Assembly (NCBI GenBank): GCA_947628505.1
Contig: CANRAD010000006.1
Coordinates: 1 to 64,000 of the forward strand
Origin: an uncultured Clostridia bacterium
GTDB lineage: Bacteria > Bacillota > Clostridia > Christensenellales > Borkfalkiaceae
DNA: 64,000 bases
Reading direction: 5' to 3'
The stretch's first letter is position 1. Every line of letters begins with the position of its first letter. The translations under genes were made by a program, and so were the position numbers. The notes under the pieces were generated by a model. The model saw only the letters and a list, made by a program, of their open reading frames with translations. It was not told where the DNA came from and searched no databases. Positions 14,955 to 64,000 of the stretch are shown piece after piece.

Positions 14955-14960
14955 AAATAA

Positions 14961-14993
14961 CGCAAAGCCTGTCGGGAAACGACAGGCTTTGCG
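14961..14993 (+). terminator. Perfect 14-bp hairpin just after tRNA-Arg
   Basis: CGCAAAGCCTGTCG-GGAAA-CGACAGGCTTTGCG, no long T tract. Confidence 0.6.
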
Positions 14994-15011
14994 CAAATTA
15001 CGGAGAAAATT

Positions 15012-15785
15012 ATGACATATAATAAATTATTGGAATTTGCCGGGCCGAGAATAAGGCAATTTCTGAAAGACAAGCAGTGCGAAGGCGCATTCGGGTGGAC
15101 GGATTTCAACGCCGAATGTTATAAGAAAATGTACGAGGAAAATTCGTATGACGACGTGCGCACGGTCAAGATGCTTAAAGAGGAAATACCCGAGCTGAGA
15201 GAGGTATGCAAGCGGTGCGGGCAATTTTATGTCCGGCCTCGTAACAAGAGTGTGGTTGTATACGACCTAATGTTCGGAAAATTGCTCGAAGACGTCATCA
15301 TAGATTTTCTCAACGCCGAATTCAGAATACACGCCGTCCACGGGGATATTACCGACAAAAGATATCCCGACTGCATGATACTCGGGCCGGATAAGGGAAT
15401 AGTGGCGTATTTCGAAGTCAAATATCACGGCGCGCCCTTTATAAACGCCATACATAAAATAAACAGATACTGTTACGAGGGCAGCGCCACGCTCGACTTC
15501 AAAAAAGTTGTCAGGCAGCTTGAAATAATAGATTCCGACATAGAGCGGCCGGTATTTTATCTGCATTGGATAGATTATCCGTGTCTTAAAGGCATCTTCT
15601 TTGAAACTTCCGAGCAGGTTAAGGACTATATATACGGCAACGGCGAGATGTTCGTAAGGCAAAAAAGAGAGGGGGACGAGGCAAAAACGCCGCAGTCGGT
15701 TTACCTTGAAAAGATTTATTCACCCCTTCTTACGATGGGAACTTTCGACGAGTTTATAAATATGATCAGAAATATGAGAGGTTGA
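15012..15785 (+). CDS. Putative PD-(D/E)XK restriction-type endonuclease
   Basis: E...YPDCMILGPDKGIVAYFEVK pattern (PD...ExK); operonic with TGT-like gene and next to DNA methyltransferases. Confidence 0.65.
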   Translation: MTYNKLLEFAGPRIRQFLKDKQCEGAFGWTDFNAECYKKMYEENSYDDVRTVKMLKEEIPELREVCKRCGQFYVRPRNKSVVVYDLMFGKLLEDVIIDFLNAEFRIHAVHGDITDKRYPDCMILGPDKGIVAYFEVKYHGAPFINAIHKINRYCYEGSATLDFKKVVRQLEIIDSDIERPVFYLHWIDYPCLKGIFFETSEQVKDYIYGNGEMFVRQKREGDEAKTPQSVYLEKIYSPLLTMGTFDEFINMIRNMRG

Positions 15786-15788
15786 TTT

Positions 15789-17168
15789 ATGGATAACCTT
15801 CGGTTACGCGGCAAGACGTTGCAGACGCCGTCTTTTTTCCAGATATATAACTACGGAGGCGGCTTCGGGCATAAAACGCGGGAAATGGTATACGCCGACT
15901 TGACGGGCGACACTCCCGCGCTGTTCAATTATTATTACATAAGCAACAAATTTCCGCATATGTTCGAAAGCTCCGAGTTCGACAATCTCGGCAAATATGC
16001 GGATATAGGCGAAGCGTTGACGGCCATCCGCGATCGTCTGGCGCGGGAAAATATATATTCGGGCTGCAAATATTCCCCGTTCGATTTCGGGAGCAAGGTA
16101 ATCTTTCTCGACTCGGGCGCGGCAAACATAGTAAACTATCTCGCCGAAAAAAACGGTTACGACGAGCAGGCGTTCAACGAAGAGCTCTGCTCGGCGATGA
16201 GGGACTATTACGATTTTGCGGACAGATACAAGTTCGACGTCGTCGCGGGTTTCGATTTGGGCGGCAAATATACTTTCAAGGGCGGCGAGCTTAAAAACGC
16301 CCCTTTAAACTGTTTTCTGAACCGGCTCGACGTGGACGCGACGAACAAAATGCTCTTTGACAAAACCTTGGATTATCTCAAAGAGAAAAGAGAATATTAT
16401 CCCGCCGTATTGGCCGTAGTGCACGGCAGAACGCCCGCCGATTACGCCGATTACGCGCGATATATCGTCAGGGAAGAGGAAGAAAAGGGATACAGGTTCA
16501 AAGGTTTTACCCTCGGCGGAGTGGCGAGTTGGAAGGCGCTCGACGCCTCGTGGTTCGAGGGAGGTTTCGACGACCGTTTGAGCAAGAGAACGGCGGCGCC
16601 GGCGCGGGCCGCAACGGCGGTGCGAAAAGTTGCGGGGGACAGACCTATACACGTTCTCGGCGGCGGGGGATACGAGAACATAGCGCTCAATTATTTCTGC
16701 GGAGCGACTTCTTTCGACGTGGCCACGCTTTCGAGGAGAGTGGGAGACGGCAACGGATTGTCCGCCGATTTCATGTTCTCGAAAGAGCCGTTGCCGAGAG
16801 AGGCGAAGTTCGGCAAGGCGTTCGTGGGCGGATATAACTCAGACTGCTCTTTAAGGAGAGAAGAAGCGGGATATGTTGCGATAGACAGGATCCCCGACGA
16901 TTTCGAGCTGTGCGGTTGCGCCGCGTGCAAGAGAGTAAATTCATTTTACGACATAAAAAAACTGTACTCCGAAAAGAGCAATGACGACGAGGCGTTTTAC
17001 TACGCATGTCAGCTTATGAACGCTCACGCCGTGTTGCAGCATCGGAAATTGTGCGAACTTCTTTCGGGATATGACGATATGGATACGTTCCGGAAAGAAA
17101 ACCCGACGGCTCTGAACATAGCTCTCAACAGGATATACAATAAAATAAAAGAAAAAGACGGCGAATAA
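15789..17168 (+). CDS. TGT-superfamily protein (tRNA-guanine transglycosylase/DpdA-like)
   Basis: TPSFF near the N-terminus, FLDSGAANI (DSG), VVHG..GFTLGGVA, HVLGGGGYENI...GATSFDVATLSRRVGDGNG, zinc ligands CGCAACKR...NAHAVLQH. Confidence 0.8.
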   Translation: MDNLRLRGKTLQTPSFFQIYNYGGGFGHKTREMVYADLTGDTPALFNYYYISNKFPHMFESSEFDNLGKYADIGEALTAIRDRLARENIYSGCKYSPFDFGSKVIFLDSGAANIVNYLAEKNGYDEQAFNEELCSAMRDYYDFADRYKFDVVAGFDLGGKYTFKGGELKNAPLNCFLNRLDVDATNKMLFDKTLDYLKEKREYYPAVLAVVHGRTPADYADYARYIVREEEEKGYRFKGFTLGGVASWKALDASWFEGGFDDRLSKRTAAPARAATAVRKVAGDRPIHVLGGGGYENIALNYFCGATSFDVATLSRRVGDGNGLSADFMFSKEPLPREAKFGKAFVGGYNSDCSLRREEAGYVAIDRIPDDFELCGCAACKRVNSFYDIKKLYSEKSNDDEAFYYACQLMNAHAVLQHRKLCELLSGYDDMDTFRKENPTALNIALNRIYNKIKEKDGE

Positions 17169-17180
17169 AACGCCGTCTTT

Positions 17181-17960
17181 TTAAATTTCGAGTTTCGCCT
17201 CGTTGCGCAGACGATGAAGTATTTCCCTTTCGTATTCGCCGTCTATTTCGAAGCCGACCGCTTTTCTGCCGAGTTTGAGCGCGGCCACCGCCGTAGTGCC
17301 GCTTCCCATAAAGGGATCGAGCACCAGATCTCCCGGTTGCGTCGACATCAGCACTATTCTCTCTATCATTTCGAGAGGGTAGACGGTGGGATGCGTCAAA
17401 CCGAGCGATTTTTTCGTCATGTTGTTCACGCGGTTGAAATACCATACGTCGGTGGGATTACGCCCCGGCCCGCCTTCGAGCCGCTTGTCGTTCTTTGTGA
17501 GATACGGCAAGCGTATTTCGTCGAGATTGAAAACGTAATCGTCGAGATTTTTCACCGCCCACAGAATATTTTCGTATCTTCCCGAAAGACGGTTCACGCA
17601 GTTTTGCATATTGTTGAAAGTCCAGACTATTATGTTTCTTATGTAGAACCCGGCGTCTTTGAGTATCTTGTATCCGATATAGGGCAGAGGCAGAATTTCC
17701 CTGTCCGCGCCGTAGGGAATGGGGGAGAGATTGAGGAAAAAACTGCCGTTCGGCTTCAATGCCTCGTAAACACGCCCGGAGACTTCGGAGATGAGATCTT
17801 CCCATTCGGGAAGGGGGAGCTTGTCCTTGTATTTGCCGTAGGGCTTTCCTATGTTGTACGGAGGCGAGGTGATGGCGGCCGCCACCGAACCGCGTTCGAC
17901 GCCGCCGAGAAGTCGGCGGCAATCGCCTATATCTATGTAAACGTTATCGCTTTTTATCAT
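17181..17960 (-). CDS. Beta-class DNA methyltransferase (N4-cytosine or N6-adenine)
   Basis: TSPPYNIG before DPFMGSGTTAVAA; start MIKSDNVYIDIGD overlaps upstream MTase stop. Confidence 0.9.
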   Translation of the reverse strand: MIKSDNVYIDIGDCRRLLGGVERGSVAAAITSPPYNIGKPYGKYKDKLPLPEWEDLISEVSGRVYEALKPNGSFFLNLSPIPYGADREILPLPYIGYKILKDAGFYIRNIIVWTFNNMQNCVNRLSGRYENILWAVKNLDDYVFNLDEIRLPYLTKNDKRLEGGPGRNPTDVWYFNRVNNMTKKSLGLTHPTVYPLEMIERIVLMSTQPGDLVLDPFMGSGTTAVAALKLGRKAVGFEIDGEYEREILHRLRNEAKLEI

Positions 17961-18741
17961 CTTCGGGCGCTCCTTGTCCGGAAATTCTGGCATTGGCCAT
18001 TTCAACGTATTCGGGCACTATCTCGTAGCCTATGTATCGGCGGCCGAGCCGCTTTGCAACCGCGCCCGTAGTGCCGCTACCCATAAAGGGATCGAGCACC
18101 GTGTCGCCCTTGTCGGAGGCGGCGAGGACGATGCGCTCTACCAATTTTTCGGGATATTGGGCGGGATGCCCCGTTCTCTCCAAAAAATTGCCGGATATCA
18201 TGGGGATTTTCCACACGTCGCTCGGGTTTTTCATCTGGGATTTATATCTGTCCGGGCGGTAGTTGAGCGCGGGGATCTTTACGGCGTCGAGATTGAACTT
18301 ATAGTTCGTTGCATCTTTTGTAAACCAAAAGACGAATTCGTAACGGGGAGCAAATCTCGTGTTCGTGGAACCGCCCCAATCGAAATTCCATATTATTATA
18401 TTTTTGAGAAACATGTCGGGAAAATAGTCGCATATCCAGAACGGCGGCAAAATGCGCTTTCCGTCGTAACGGCTCTTTATGTTTATCCATATGGAGCCGT
18501 CGTCCGTCAGCGCTCTCCGACATTCCGAAAACACCGCGCCGAGCATGCGCCTGTATTCTTCTTCCGGCAGATTGTCGGCATATTTTACGCCCTTGCTCTC
18601 AATCTTTCTTCCCTCGCGCGTCCTGTTGCCGTAAACGTTGTTTATGTTGTAAGGAGGAGAAGTAACCACAAGGTTTATCGATTTGTCTTCGAGTTCGTGC
18701 ATTTTTTCGCTCGAATGCATATATATAATGTCCTTTTCCAT
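17944..18741 (-). CDS. Beta-class DNA methyltransferase, second of tandem pair
   Basis: TSPPYNINNVYG ... DPFMGSGTTGAVA; SD AAAGGTGG before MEKDIIYM. Confidence 0.9.
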   Translation of the reverse strand: MEKDIIYMHSSEKMHELEDKSINLVVTSPPYNINNVYGNRTREGRKIESKGVKYADNLPEEEYRRMLGAVFSECRRALTDDGSIWINIKSRYDGKRILPPFWICDYFPDMFLKNIIIWNFDWGGSTNTRFAPRYEFVFWFTKDATNYKFNLDAVKIPALNYRPDRYKSQMKNPSDVWKIPMISGNFLERTGHPAQYPEKLVERIVLAASDKGDTVLDPFMGSGTTGAVAKRLGRRYIGYEIVPEYVEMANARISGQGAPEDDKKR

Positions 18742-18751
18742 GCGCCCACCT

Positions 18752-18952
18752 TTAAGTACGTACAATTTCCACAACGTCGCCGAGCTCGCAATTCAAGGCA
18801 ACGCATATCTTTACGAGCGATTCCAGCGGAACGTATTGCCCCTTGCCGAGTTTCGCTATCGTATTGGAGGTTACCCCCGCCAGACTTATGAGTTGCGTTC
18901 GTTTCAGCCCGCGGTCGATAAGCAGTTTCCATAACCCGTTGTAATTTAACAT
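18752..18952 (-). CDS. XRE-family HTH regulator (C-protein-like)
   Basis: HTH LKRTQLISLAGVTSNTIAKLGKGQYVPLESLVKICVAL; SD AAGGTGG; first gene of MTase operon. Confidence 0.85.
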   Translation of the reverse strand: MLNYNGLWKLLIDRGLKRTQLISLAGVTSNTIAKLGKGQYVPLESLVKICVALNCELGDVVEIVRT

Positions 18953-18973
18953 AGTCCACCTTACTATAATTGA

Positions 18974-19012
18974 ATTATACAATATTTCATTGAATATGTC
19001 AATAAAATATTG
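18974..19012 (-). promoter_or_regulatory. Consensus promoter plus near-perfect 33-bp palindromic operator for the XRE-MTase operon
   Basis: Minus strand TTGACA-17-TATAAT; CAATATTTCATTGA(18980-18993)-ATATG-TCAATAAAATATTG(18999-19012), 13/14 arm match. Confidence 0.8.
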
Positions 19013-19230
19013 ACAACGACGGATAAAATTTCATAAAACACTAAGAGGAAAGTAAACTCTTCGGAGCCCATAATCAAAAATCCGAATGTAAAGTTTTATA
19101 AAATCCGGCGAAAAGACTAAACGTCCGGTCGGCAGAGGAAAAGCGGAAAGCGTAAAAGCGCTTAAAACTCCGCCGCAAAAGGCGTGCGAAAAATTTTTTC
19201 AAAAAAAAGTAAACTTAGGTTATTTTTTAG

Positions 19231-19258
19231 TTGACAAAAGAAAAACGCGGAGTATAAT
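19231..19258 (+). promoter_or_regulatory. Promoter upstream of feoA1
   Basis: TTGACA-16-TATAAT. Confidence 0.75.
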
Positions 19259-19299
19259 ATATATTGAAAATAAACCATAACTAATTTTTGAGGTGCGCA

Positions 19300-19512
19300 A
19301 TGCCTATTGCAATTGCTCCTGCCGGCGCGGAACTTCAAATAAGGAAAGTCGCGGCGGACGACAAAGTTAAAAAACATCTTCACGAGATGGGAATATGCGA
19401 AGGAAGCAAGATAACCTTGATTTCTTCCACGGGCGGCAACGTTATAGTTATCGTAAAAGAGGGCCGGATATGTCTGGACAGAACGCTCGCCGGAAAAATT
19501 TTAGTGGCGTAA
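19300..19512 (+). CDS. feoA: FeoA family protein
   Basis: LQIRKVAADDKVKKHLHEMGICEGSKITLIS..GNVIVIVKEGRICLDRTLAGKI. Confidence 0.88.
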   Translation: MPIAIAPAGAELQIRKVAADDKVKKHLHEMGICEGSKITLISSTGGNVIVIVKEGRICLDRTLAGKILVA

Positions 19513-61997: not shown

Positions 61998-62028
61998 ATA
62001 AAAAGCGCCTTTTAAAAGGTGCTTTTTG
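61998..62028 (+). terminator. Terminator
   Basis: AAAAAGCGCCTTT-TA-AAAGGTGCTTTTT. Confidence 0.8.
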
Positions 62029-62138
62029 TATAACTATGTAACATTTTGTTAGTTCAATTCGTCTAAATATTTAATTGCATAAGCAATTTTGTGCAATCAA
62101 ATATATTTAAGAAATGTGCAAAAGAGGGATGATGAACT

Positions 62139-64000
62139 ATGATGAAAAACGAAAAAAATATATATGTAAACAATACTAAAAAGTTATGGAAAGAAATTAA
62201 AAAACGTGCAAATTTTGAGGATAGTGATTATGACAAGACATTACTCAAAGACTTAAAAAATAATCTTAATATTGATGAAAATGGGGAATTTGAAACGGAA
62301 ATTGAATCAATTCAGATAGAAACATTTCTTGACGCACTGCTTTCTGCCGTTGAACCATTTTCGTTGATGATGTCCGACCTTCTTGAACTTTTTGAGCGTG
62401 TAGGCGCACAAAAAGGAGATAATAATCTACAGATCGAAATTGATTTCGGCAAGCTGAAAAACAAATTCCGTTTTGATATAAATAATTTCAGACAGAGCGT
62501 TGAAAAGTTTGAAAAAACTTATAACGCCCGTATACGTGAAAATAAGATTAAAAATCCTTTTAAAATGTCGGATATATTTGGATATAGAGTTTATTCAGAG
62601 AATGAATTTATTTCAAAGGGATTTGATAAAATTGCCGAATGGATTAGATTTTATAATGACGAAAAATGGGTTTACTGGTTTCCGCGTCAGCCATACAGCG
62701 GCATTAAAAAGCTTGATGAGCTGATCCGTATCTTCTGGGAGCTTATTTCACACACGTATTTTCGTATTGGAAAGGCATGTAATTTTGAAGGTAGTAGGAG
62801 GCAGGGGGTCGGCAGATTATTGAATAAAATTAATTCTGATGGTATAACAGATTCAATGCTGTGTGCAGAAAGTGATTGTATCATTCGCAGTATGGTCATT
62901 GGAATAACGCAAAAAATAATAGAAATAAAGTTGCCGCAATTTGAAGCAAAAATGGAGGCGGAAGAATTAACGCAGAAAATCAAAAGCTATTTAAATTCTT
63001 TAGATATACAATATTATTCTGTAAAGCAAAAAAAAGAATTGATTTTTGATTTGTTTAATTTGCCGGTATGGAATCATCGGTATGAATTGTATTCGGCGTG
63101 GGTGTTTACGCTTATAGTAAAAGCATTTGGGGATTGTAAACTTGATTTTCATTTAAAAGACGGAGTGCTTTCGTTTTCCTTTGGCGGCTCACATCTTGCA
63201 ACCTGTAAATCAACATTCCCCGAGCTTGAAATTTATGCCGAACTAAAAACTAAGGCGATTGCAAATTTGATAAGTAAAAAGCGAAAGGATAACATACAGC
63301 CTGATTACAGTATTGCATTTAATCCTGTGAACGAGCCAAACAATTCAGTTGCGGTAATTGAATGTAAGCAGTACAAAAAAAGCAGTGTATCCAATTTTTC
63401 AGAGGCGGTTATTGATTATGCAAATAATAGACCGGACGCAAAAATTTTTCTCGTTAATTACGGTAATATTTCAAAAAGAGTAAATAGCCGAATTTGTAAA
63501 CAAGTTTCAAACGGAAGATATAATTTAGTCGAATATGTCAAACCTCAGAGTGCGGAGGCTAACGGCTTTGTTTATGAGCTGAAAGAGGTTATTGAAAAAT
63601 ATCTTAATAGATTTATTGCGCCTTGCACAATAAGTCTTAAATGGGGGAATAAACCATCGGATTTGGATCTTGAATTGTTATTCACAAACGATTCAAGTTC
63701 AATTAGAGTTAATTATCAAAATACCGGTAATCAAGCATCGGAGCCATATGCTGTGCTTGACCATGACGACAGGGATGGAAATGGAAACGAGACAATAACG
63801 GTGTATCAATGGGCAGAAGGTCAATACGATATATATGTAAATAATTATTCCGGTGAAAAAACGTTAGACGGGAATATTGAGTTGACTATTTCCTCAGCGA
63901 CGTTTGAAAAAGTTTTAAAACTTTGCCTGCCTTTTACCAAAGAATATTGCTGGCACGTGCTGAAAATTAATAACGGATTCATTGAAATGGTTGACAAAAT
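62139..64000 (+). CDS. Large accessory/defence-like protein, partial (runs off window): PD-(D/E)XK-like motif plus DUF2135-like beta domain
   Basis: Continuous frame of >620 codons from ATG 62139 (SD-like GAGGG at 62124-62128); PDYSIAFNPVNEPNNSVAVIECKQYKK; LKWGNKPSDLDLELLF...LDHDDRDGNGNETITVYQWAEGQYDIYVNNYSG. Not in the ORF track because it is open at the right edge. Confidence 0.75.
   Translation, partial: MMKNEKNIYVNNTKKLWKEIKKRANFEDSDYDKTLLKDLKNNLNIDENGEFETEIESIQIETFLDALLSAVEPFSLMMSDLLELFERVGAQKGDNNLQIEIDFGKLKNKFRFDINNFRQSVEKFEKTYNARIRENKIKNPFKMSDIFGYRVYSENEFISKGFDKIAEWIRFYNDEKWVYWFPRQPYSGIKKLDELIRIFWELISHTYFRIGKACNFEGSRRQGVGRLLNKINSDGITDSMLCAESDCIIRSMVIGITQKIIEIKLPQFEAKMEAEELTQKIKSYLNSLDIQYYSVKQKKELIFDLFNLPVWNHRYELYSAWVFTLIVKAFGDCKLDFHLKDGVLSFSFGGSHLATCKSTFPELEIYAELKTKAIANLISKKRKDNIQPDYSIAFNPVNEPNNSVAVIECKQYKKSSVSNFSEAVIDYANNRPDAKIFLVNYGNISKRVNSRICKQVSNGRYNLVEYVKPQSAEANGFVYELKEVIEKYLNRFIAPCTISLKWGNKPSDLDLELLFTNDSSSIRVNYQNTGNQASEPYAVLDHDDRDGNGNETITVYQWAEGQYDIYVNNYSGEKTLDGNIELTISSATFEKVLKLCLPFTKEYCWHVLKINNGFIEMVDK

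What the first reader, a model, noticed from the sequence alone, without database searches (positions are those of the whole stretch)
15012..19012. R-M-like island pairing a PD-(D/E)XK nuclease with a TGT/DpdA-family transglycosylase
Sequence: nuclease-like ORF (PD...EVK) and TGT-superfamily ORF are 3 bp apart on +. Convergent on - are an XRE regulator and two overlapping beta-class MTases. The TGT-like ORF keeps TPxFF, DSG, VVHG/GGVA, the FDxxxxxRxxxxNG region and CxCxxC...H zinc ligands. Established: DpdA is a TGT homologue that inserts 7-deazaguanine derivatives into DNA within dpd clusters; tandem MTases are typical of asymmetric-site Type II/IIS R-M. Inference: a base-exchange enzyme combined with methylation-based self/non-self discrimination, or a TGT that guards or marks sites for the nuclease. 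The usual dpd partners are not visible here, so this is a compact layout I do not recognise as a described system.
Basis: partly seen in the sequence, partly recalled or inferred. Interest (0 to 1): 0.88.

Follow-up and report, generated by a model that had tools for sequence, protein, structure and literature searches.

The report
Restriction-modification cassette with base-swapping enzyme
In a few gut bacteria a DNA-cutting enzyme and two DNA-methylating enzymes travel as one package with a distant relative of the enzymes that swap guanine bases in tRNA and phage DNA, which suggests an undescribed kind of DNA self/non-self system that uses base exchange as well as methylation.

Summary
NUC (15012-15785+) and TGT-like (15789-17168+) converge with HTH-M1-M2 on the minus strand. 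TGT-like matches no Pfam or NCBIfam family, but its AlphaFold model has the TGT fold (Z about 26), and catalytic Asp, base-pocket and Zn-ligand residues are invariant in nine homologues. Motif details (DSGAF, His at the TGT Gln203 position) lean towards phage DpdA. NUC models as a PD-(D/E)XK nuclease (Hjc/RecU type), triad invariant in eight homologues. M1 and M2 are beta-class MTases with TSPPYN, probably N4-cytosine.

The linkage is real. A scan of 84,980 species genomes gave nine TGT-like loci; with the window they form seven lineages (44-52% identity to the window protein). Each lineage has NUC and both MTases on the same contig, in reshuffled order, and only these genes recur among unrelated loci. 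All four are under purifying selection with correlated divergence. An independent NUC search found it only beside TGT.

All ten hosts have QueA, but eight lack a clear QueC, so preQ0 is probably not made. I favour TGT acting on the restriction side (about 0.4) over a second self-mark (0.3). No description was found in the open papers searched.

The parts
15012..15785 (+). NUC: PD-(D/E)XK nuclease, Hjc/RecU-type fold, catalytic D120, E135, K137
15789..17168 (+). TGT-like: TGT/DpdA-superfamily enzyme; D108, D156, H212, D310, C375/C377/C380, H413 invariant in nine homologues
17181..18005 (-). M2: beta-class DNA methyltransferase (PF01555), TSPPYN motif
17944..18774 (-). M1: beta-class DNA methyltransferase (PF01555), TSPPYN motif; overlaps M2
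18752..18982 (-). HTH: XRE-type regulator (PF13443), likely start ATG at 18952; not part of the conserved core (a homologue was found in L008 only)
18974..19002 (-). Perfect sigma-70-type promoter TTGACA-17-TATAAT for HTH-M1-M2
   Evidence: consensus match only
17152..17182 (.). Terminator-like hairpin between the convergent TGT and M2 genes
   Evidence: consensus match only

Best explanation
A compact, horizontally mobile restriction-modification cassette of four core genes. SHOWN by comparison: NUC, TGT-like, M1 and M2 are co-inherited, are under purifying selection and keep their catalytic residues. INFERRED mechanism: M1 and M2 methylate the two strands of the system's own site (probably N4-methylcytosine, on the base that pairs with guanine). 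TGT-like belongs to the restriction side: at a site without methylation it attacks the glycosidic bond of a guanine with D310, through the covalent enzyme-nucleic acid intermediate known from TGT, and then either leaves an abasic site or puts in a salvaged base such as preQ1. NUC, which has the fold of nucleases that read DNA structure, cuts at that lesion or mark. Methylated host DNA is spared. Layered confidence: about 0.95 that the conserved four-gene cassette is real, about 0.9 that TGT-like is an active TGT/DpdA-superfamily enzyme, about 0.4 for the restriction-side mechanism (the figure given here).
For: Linkage in seven lineages with reshuffled order, and no other gene shared among unrelated loci. 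dN/dS 0.03-0.04 in all four genes between L012 and L015. Correlated divergence: TGT-M2 r 0.90 p 0.003, TGT-M1 r 0.78 p 0.008, NUC-M1 r 0.72 p 0.002, NUC-TGT r 0.43 p 0.03. NUC sought on its own occurs only in the two genomes that have TGT. TGT fold and catalytic residues. NUC or NUC2 is adjacent to or overlaps TGT in four lineages, in three of them away from the M genes. Self-marking is already covered by two MTases. Eight of ten hosts show no clear QueC while all have QueA, so a supply of preQ0 is doubtful.
Against: The known relatives, DpdA, are modification enzymes. In L008 and L009 TGT is alone on the opposite strand, and in L011 it precedes M1. NUC-TGT distance correlation is the weakest of the pairs. 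Salvaged preQ1 could feed a marking reaction. No biochemical test; no multimer model was possible.
Confidence: 0.4

Rival explanations
1. Self-marking: TGT-like is a second modification enzyme. It exchanges guanine at host sites for a salvaged 7-deazaguanine (preQ1, or preQ0 where made), M1/M2 methylation is a companion mark, and NUC cuts DNA that lacks the mark: a minimal Dpd-like system grafted on a Type II one.
For: DpdA precedent, dPreQ0 and dPreQ1 are known in phage DNA (PMC6884629). Motif leaning to phage DpdA. All hosts have QueA without, in most, a clear QueC, the pattern of preQ1/preQ0 salvage (PMC11130926).
Against: TGT is in the NUC operon and away from M1/M2 in three lineages; two MTases already mark self; no DpdB, DpdC or preQ0 genes recur beside it.
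Confidence: 0.3
2. Structural role: TGT-like serves mainly as a DNA-reading specificity subunit for NUC and does no chemistry.
For: NUC is small, and a degenerate paralogue NUC2 is present in four lineages, so assembly from several subunits is plausible.
Against: Catalytic Asp, base pocket and Zn site are invariant in nine proteins that are only 44-52% identical to the window protein.
Confidence: 0.1
3. tRNA-directed response: TGT-like changes a tRNA base and NUC or another factor acts on the changed tRNA, an abortive-infection scheme with the MTases as a separate module.
For: TGT fold is nearest to tRNA enzymes by Z; the island sits behind a tRNA-Arg gene.
Against: Co-inheritance and correlated divergence with two DNA MTases; DpdA-like motifs; NUC is nearest to DNA resolvases. 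The position behind tRNA-Arg is not shared by the other loci examined.
Confidence: 0.1

Closest known systems
Dpd system (bacterial DpdA-DpdK, 7-deazaguanine in DNA)
   Same: TGT-superfamily enzyme in a self/non-self cluster with nuclease
   Different: No recurrent DpdB, DpdC or preQ0-synthesis genes beside it; carries two DNA methyltransferases; four core genes only; no sequence match to DpdA beyond a weak profile similarity
Phage DpdA (Enterobacteria phage 9g type, PMC6884629)
   Same: DSGAF motif, His in place of TGT Gln203, GG motif; better profile match than tRNA TGT
   Different: 459 aa with a CxCxxC...H zinc site, bacterial, linked to nuclease and MTases, most hosts without clear QueC
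Type II restriction-modification with two methyltransferases
   Same: M1/M2 pair, PD-(D/E)XK nuclease, HTH regulator in some loci, mobile, patchy distribution
   Different: An obligate TGT-superfamily gene; no Type II system with one is known to me
BREX-related capture (BRC) system with TGT (PMC12839542)
   Same: TGT homologue recruited into a defence locus
   Different: BRC is built on PglZ, DUF6079, HerA/FtsK and others; none of these recurs here
PabI-type restriction glycosylases (PMC10273834)
   Same: Would work alike if TGT-like excises a base at unmethylated sites
   Different: PabI has the HALFPIPE fold and removes adenine; TGT-like has the TGT fold and would act on guanine

Membership tests
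TGT superfamily (fold level) | TGT-type TIM barrel | tested here: met
   Foldseek E 7e-7 to TGT; Z 26.5 to 1iq8, 25.8 to Zymomonas TGT
TGT superfamily (fold level) | Two catalytic Asp and Zn ligands | tested here: met
   D108, D310, C375/C377/C380 aligned with TGT and invariant in nine proteins; H413 assigned by eye
tRNA TGT family PF01702 | Score over the curated cut-off | tested here: not met
   No match at E 1; the housekeeping TGT of the same genome scores 520 bits
DpdA family | Sequence relationship to DpdA | tested here: inconclusive
   Profile match to phage DpdA E 7e-4 but probability 27%; Foldseek match to 7ui4 E 5.8e-5
Dpd system | DpdB, DpdC and preQ0 synthesis genes in the cluster | tested here: not met
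   Only M1, M2, NUC and TGT recur within 8 kb among unrelated loci; no clear QueC in eight of ten hosts
Dpd system | 7-deazaguanine in DNA | not testable with these tools
   Needs LC-MS
PD-(D/E)XK nuclease superfamily | Fold and PD...ExK residues | tested here: met
   Z 10-12 to Hjc and RecU over 114-135 residues; triad invariant in eight proteins
Type II restriction-modification | Linked DNA methyltransferase and nuclease genes, mobile | tested here: met
   patchy distribution
Type II restriction-modification | Site-specific cleavage blocked by cognate methylation | not testable with these tools
   Needs enzymes and DNA
BREX-related capture (BRC) system | PglZ, DUF6079, HerA/FtsK and DUF4007 partners | tested here: not met
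   No gene other than the four is shared among unrelated loci within 8 kb
PabI-type restriction glycosylase | HALFPIPE fold | tested here: not met
   TGT-like has the TGT fold and NUC the PD-(D/E)XK fold

The most novel reading that the evidence does not exclude
A new mechanistic class of restriction: a TGT-superfamily enzyme that makes a methylation-sensitive guanine exchange or excision in DNA at its target site, with a dedicated PD-(D/E)XK nuclease finishing the cut. It would be a guanine-directed restriction transglycosylase or glycosylase, an R-M system with a base exchange reaction on the attacking side.
Probability: 0.35. Interest if true: 0.93.

Novelty: new variant of a known kind. 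Interest (0 to 1): 0.78.

Why it matters
It joins two self/non-self chemistries that are otherwise found apart, methylation and guanine base exchange, in a four-gene cassette small enough to clone whole. If TGT acts on the attacking side, it adds a reaction to the short list of restriction chemistries (phosphodiesterases and PabI-type glycosylases). If it acts on the marking side, it is an unusually small deazaguanine system that would run on a salvaged base. Either way it makes the question of what DNA transglycosylases do in defence directly testable.

Tried and rejected
Chance neighbours: rejected by seven lineages with reshuffled order. Housekeeping tRNA TGT: rejected. Database filing: no Pfam or NCBIfam family for NUC, none of substance for TGT-like, only a weak PADLOC TGT hit E 0.0055. 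Relatives of TGT-like in phages, plasmids and viral contigs, and of NUC in plasmids and viral contigs: none. Single-sequence hhalign to own TGT and 9g DpdA was not significant; a first TGT profile was built partly from wrong-strand translations and redone. Sequence search of solved structures: nothing for TGT-like or NUC; 9g DpdA did not reach the solved DpdA by phmmer. M1/M2 relatives on plasmids did not give a target site; one lies beside a ScaI-family enzyme. A weak QueF match in the window genome (E 1.8e-7, 60 of 81 positions) is probably FolE and was not resolved.

Full report
OBSERVATION. NUC and TGT-like are 3 bp apart on the plus strand. HTH, M1 and M2 come towards them on the minus strand behind a perfect TTGACA-17-TATAAT promoter, which makes the ATG at 18952 the likely HTH start. 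A terminator-like hairpin separates the two units. The island starts directly behind tRNA-Arg(CCG). NUC has a GGAG ribosome-binding site; the scan found no promoter in the 57 bp between the tRNA and NUC, which hold a perfect 14-bp inverted repeat.

WHAT THE PROTEINS ARE. M1 and M2 match PF01555 strongly and HTH matches PF13443. NUC and TGT-like match no Pfam family; TGT-like has a weak PADLOC TGT match (E 0.0055). From the homologues below I built alignments and AlphaFold models. TGT-like (pLDDT 78, pTM 0.85) finds TGTs in the PDB: Foldseek E 7e-7, and DpdA 7ui4 at E 5.8e-5; Z 26.5 to archaeosine TGT and 25.8 to Zymomonas TGT. A profile alignment puts its invariant residues in register with tRNA TGT: D108 in DSG, D156 in FD, H212 where TGT has Gln203, G243-G244, D310 at the nucleophile and the CxCxxC; H413 as fourth zinc ligand is assigned by eye. 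DSGAF (consensus of the nine proteins; the window itself has DSGAA) and the His are shared with phage DpdA. The profile match to phage DpdA (E 7e-4, probability 27%) is better than that to TGT (E 0.056) and better than TGT and DpdA match each other (E 0.023). Sequence alone would not carry the assignment; fold and motifs together do. NUC (pLDDT 71, moderate) models as a PD-(D/E)XK nuclease nearest to Hjc and RecU resolvases, D212 and the SPARDA nuclease, with D120, E135 and K137 invariant in eight proteins.

CONSERVATION. A search of 396 genomes of the order found one clear relative of TGT-like (G235, 49%); the phylum sample of 398 found none besides the window. The scan of 84,980 species genomes gave nine loci, one of them the contig of G235. 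With the window they form seven lineages: window; L014 with L013; L008; L009 with L010; L011; L012 with L015; L016. NUC and M1 are beside TGT in all but L010, where the contig ends about 160 bp behind TGT. M2 is beside them too, except in L011, where it lies about 5 kb further along the contig. Order and strand are reshuffled, and apart from short overlapping reading frames only these four genes recur among the unrelated loci, with one further pair of ABC-type genes in L008 and L011 (the ABC reading is by eye). Four lineages carry a second nuclease-like protein NUC2 that has lost the triad. L012 and L015 differ with dN/dS 0.03-0.04 in all four genes. Protein distances of the four genes are correlated across lineages (the test has no correction for host relatedness). 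Sought on its own, NUC has a full match in two of 392 order genomes and two of 398 family genomes, the same two, both with TGT. In the genus the stretch behind tRNA-Arg is variable; one species has other genes ahead of feoA there. Most hosts are labelled gut Clostridia; the labels Bacteroides and Scatousia come from MAG binning and I do not rely on them.

SUBSTRATE. The window genome has a housekeeping TGT and all ten hosts have QueA. QueC is clear in two of ten only, QueF in two, the YhhQ transporter in two. This is the pattern of precursor salvage described for gut Bacillota (PMC11130926). So TGT-like cannot in general count on preQ0 made by the host. It may use salvaged preQ1 or need no deazaguanine at all. 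This is suggestive only: MAGs are incomplete and such salvage is common.

MECHANISM. I favour the restriction side. NUC or NUC2 is adjacent to or overlaps TGT in four lineages, in three of them away from the M genes. Self-marking is covered by M1 and M2. The TGT reaction attacks the glycosidic bond of guanine, so a methyl group on the paired cytosine is a plausible block; both MTases have TSPPYN, common in N4-cytosine enzymes (from general knowledge, not diagnostic), and a 39% relative of M2 lies beside a ScaI-family enzyme. NUC has the fold of nucleases that read DNA structure. The chief rival, a second self-mark, has the precedent of DpdA and is nearly as likely. The invariant catalytic residues speak against a merely structural role.

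KNOWN OR NEW. Dpd and phage DpdA (PMC6884629), BRC (PMC12839542) and PabI-type restriction glycosylases (PMC10273834) are the nearest described things; none has this gene set. Literature searches found no description of a TGT-nuclease-MTase cassette, but only open-licence papers were searched and REBASE was not. I file it as a new variant of a known kind, restriction-modification, with a categorically new mechanism as the open possibility.

Noticed in passing
L008 9415-9948, L009 9417-9959, L011 10922-11542, L016 7555-8004: A second, shorter NUC paralogue (NUC2) that has lost the PD-ExK residues sits next to NUC1 in four lineages and is absent from the other three.
   Followed up: partly
L014 and L013 (G235 contig C25): The four-gene cassette is nearly identical in two MAGs with different labels while the surrounding element is 88-95% identical; the element carries a REP_ORF2-G2P replication protein. 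Recent transfer of the cassette or misbinning.
   Followed up: partly
window 14961-14993: Perfect 14-bp inverted repeat with 5-nt loop between tRNA-Arg and the NUC start, with no T run on the plus strand; possible operator or RNA element of the NUC-TGT unit.
   Followed up: no
L009 5645-7620; L012 11582-16519; L008 12965-13885: Neighbours with matches to candidate defence families: PDC-M30A with a radical SAM gene, an HNH type IV-like enzyme and a helicase, PDC-S19. The cassette often lies in defence-rich surroundings.
   Followed up: partly
window 14955-19300 and relatives L055-L063: The stretch behind tRNA-Arg differs from species to species in the genus, a possible insertion hotspot.
   Followed up: partly
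window 62001-64000: G+C drops to 0.336 with strong GC skew, unlike the rest of the window.
   Followed up: no
G425, G431, G473 (second PF01702 matches): Three genomes of the phylum sample have a second, lower-scoring TGT-family gene (E 3e-89 to 5e-100).
   Followed up: no
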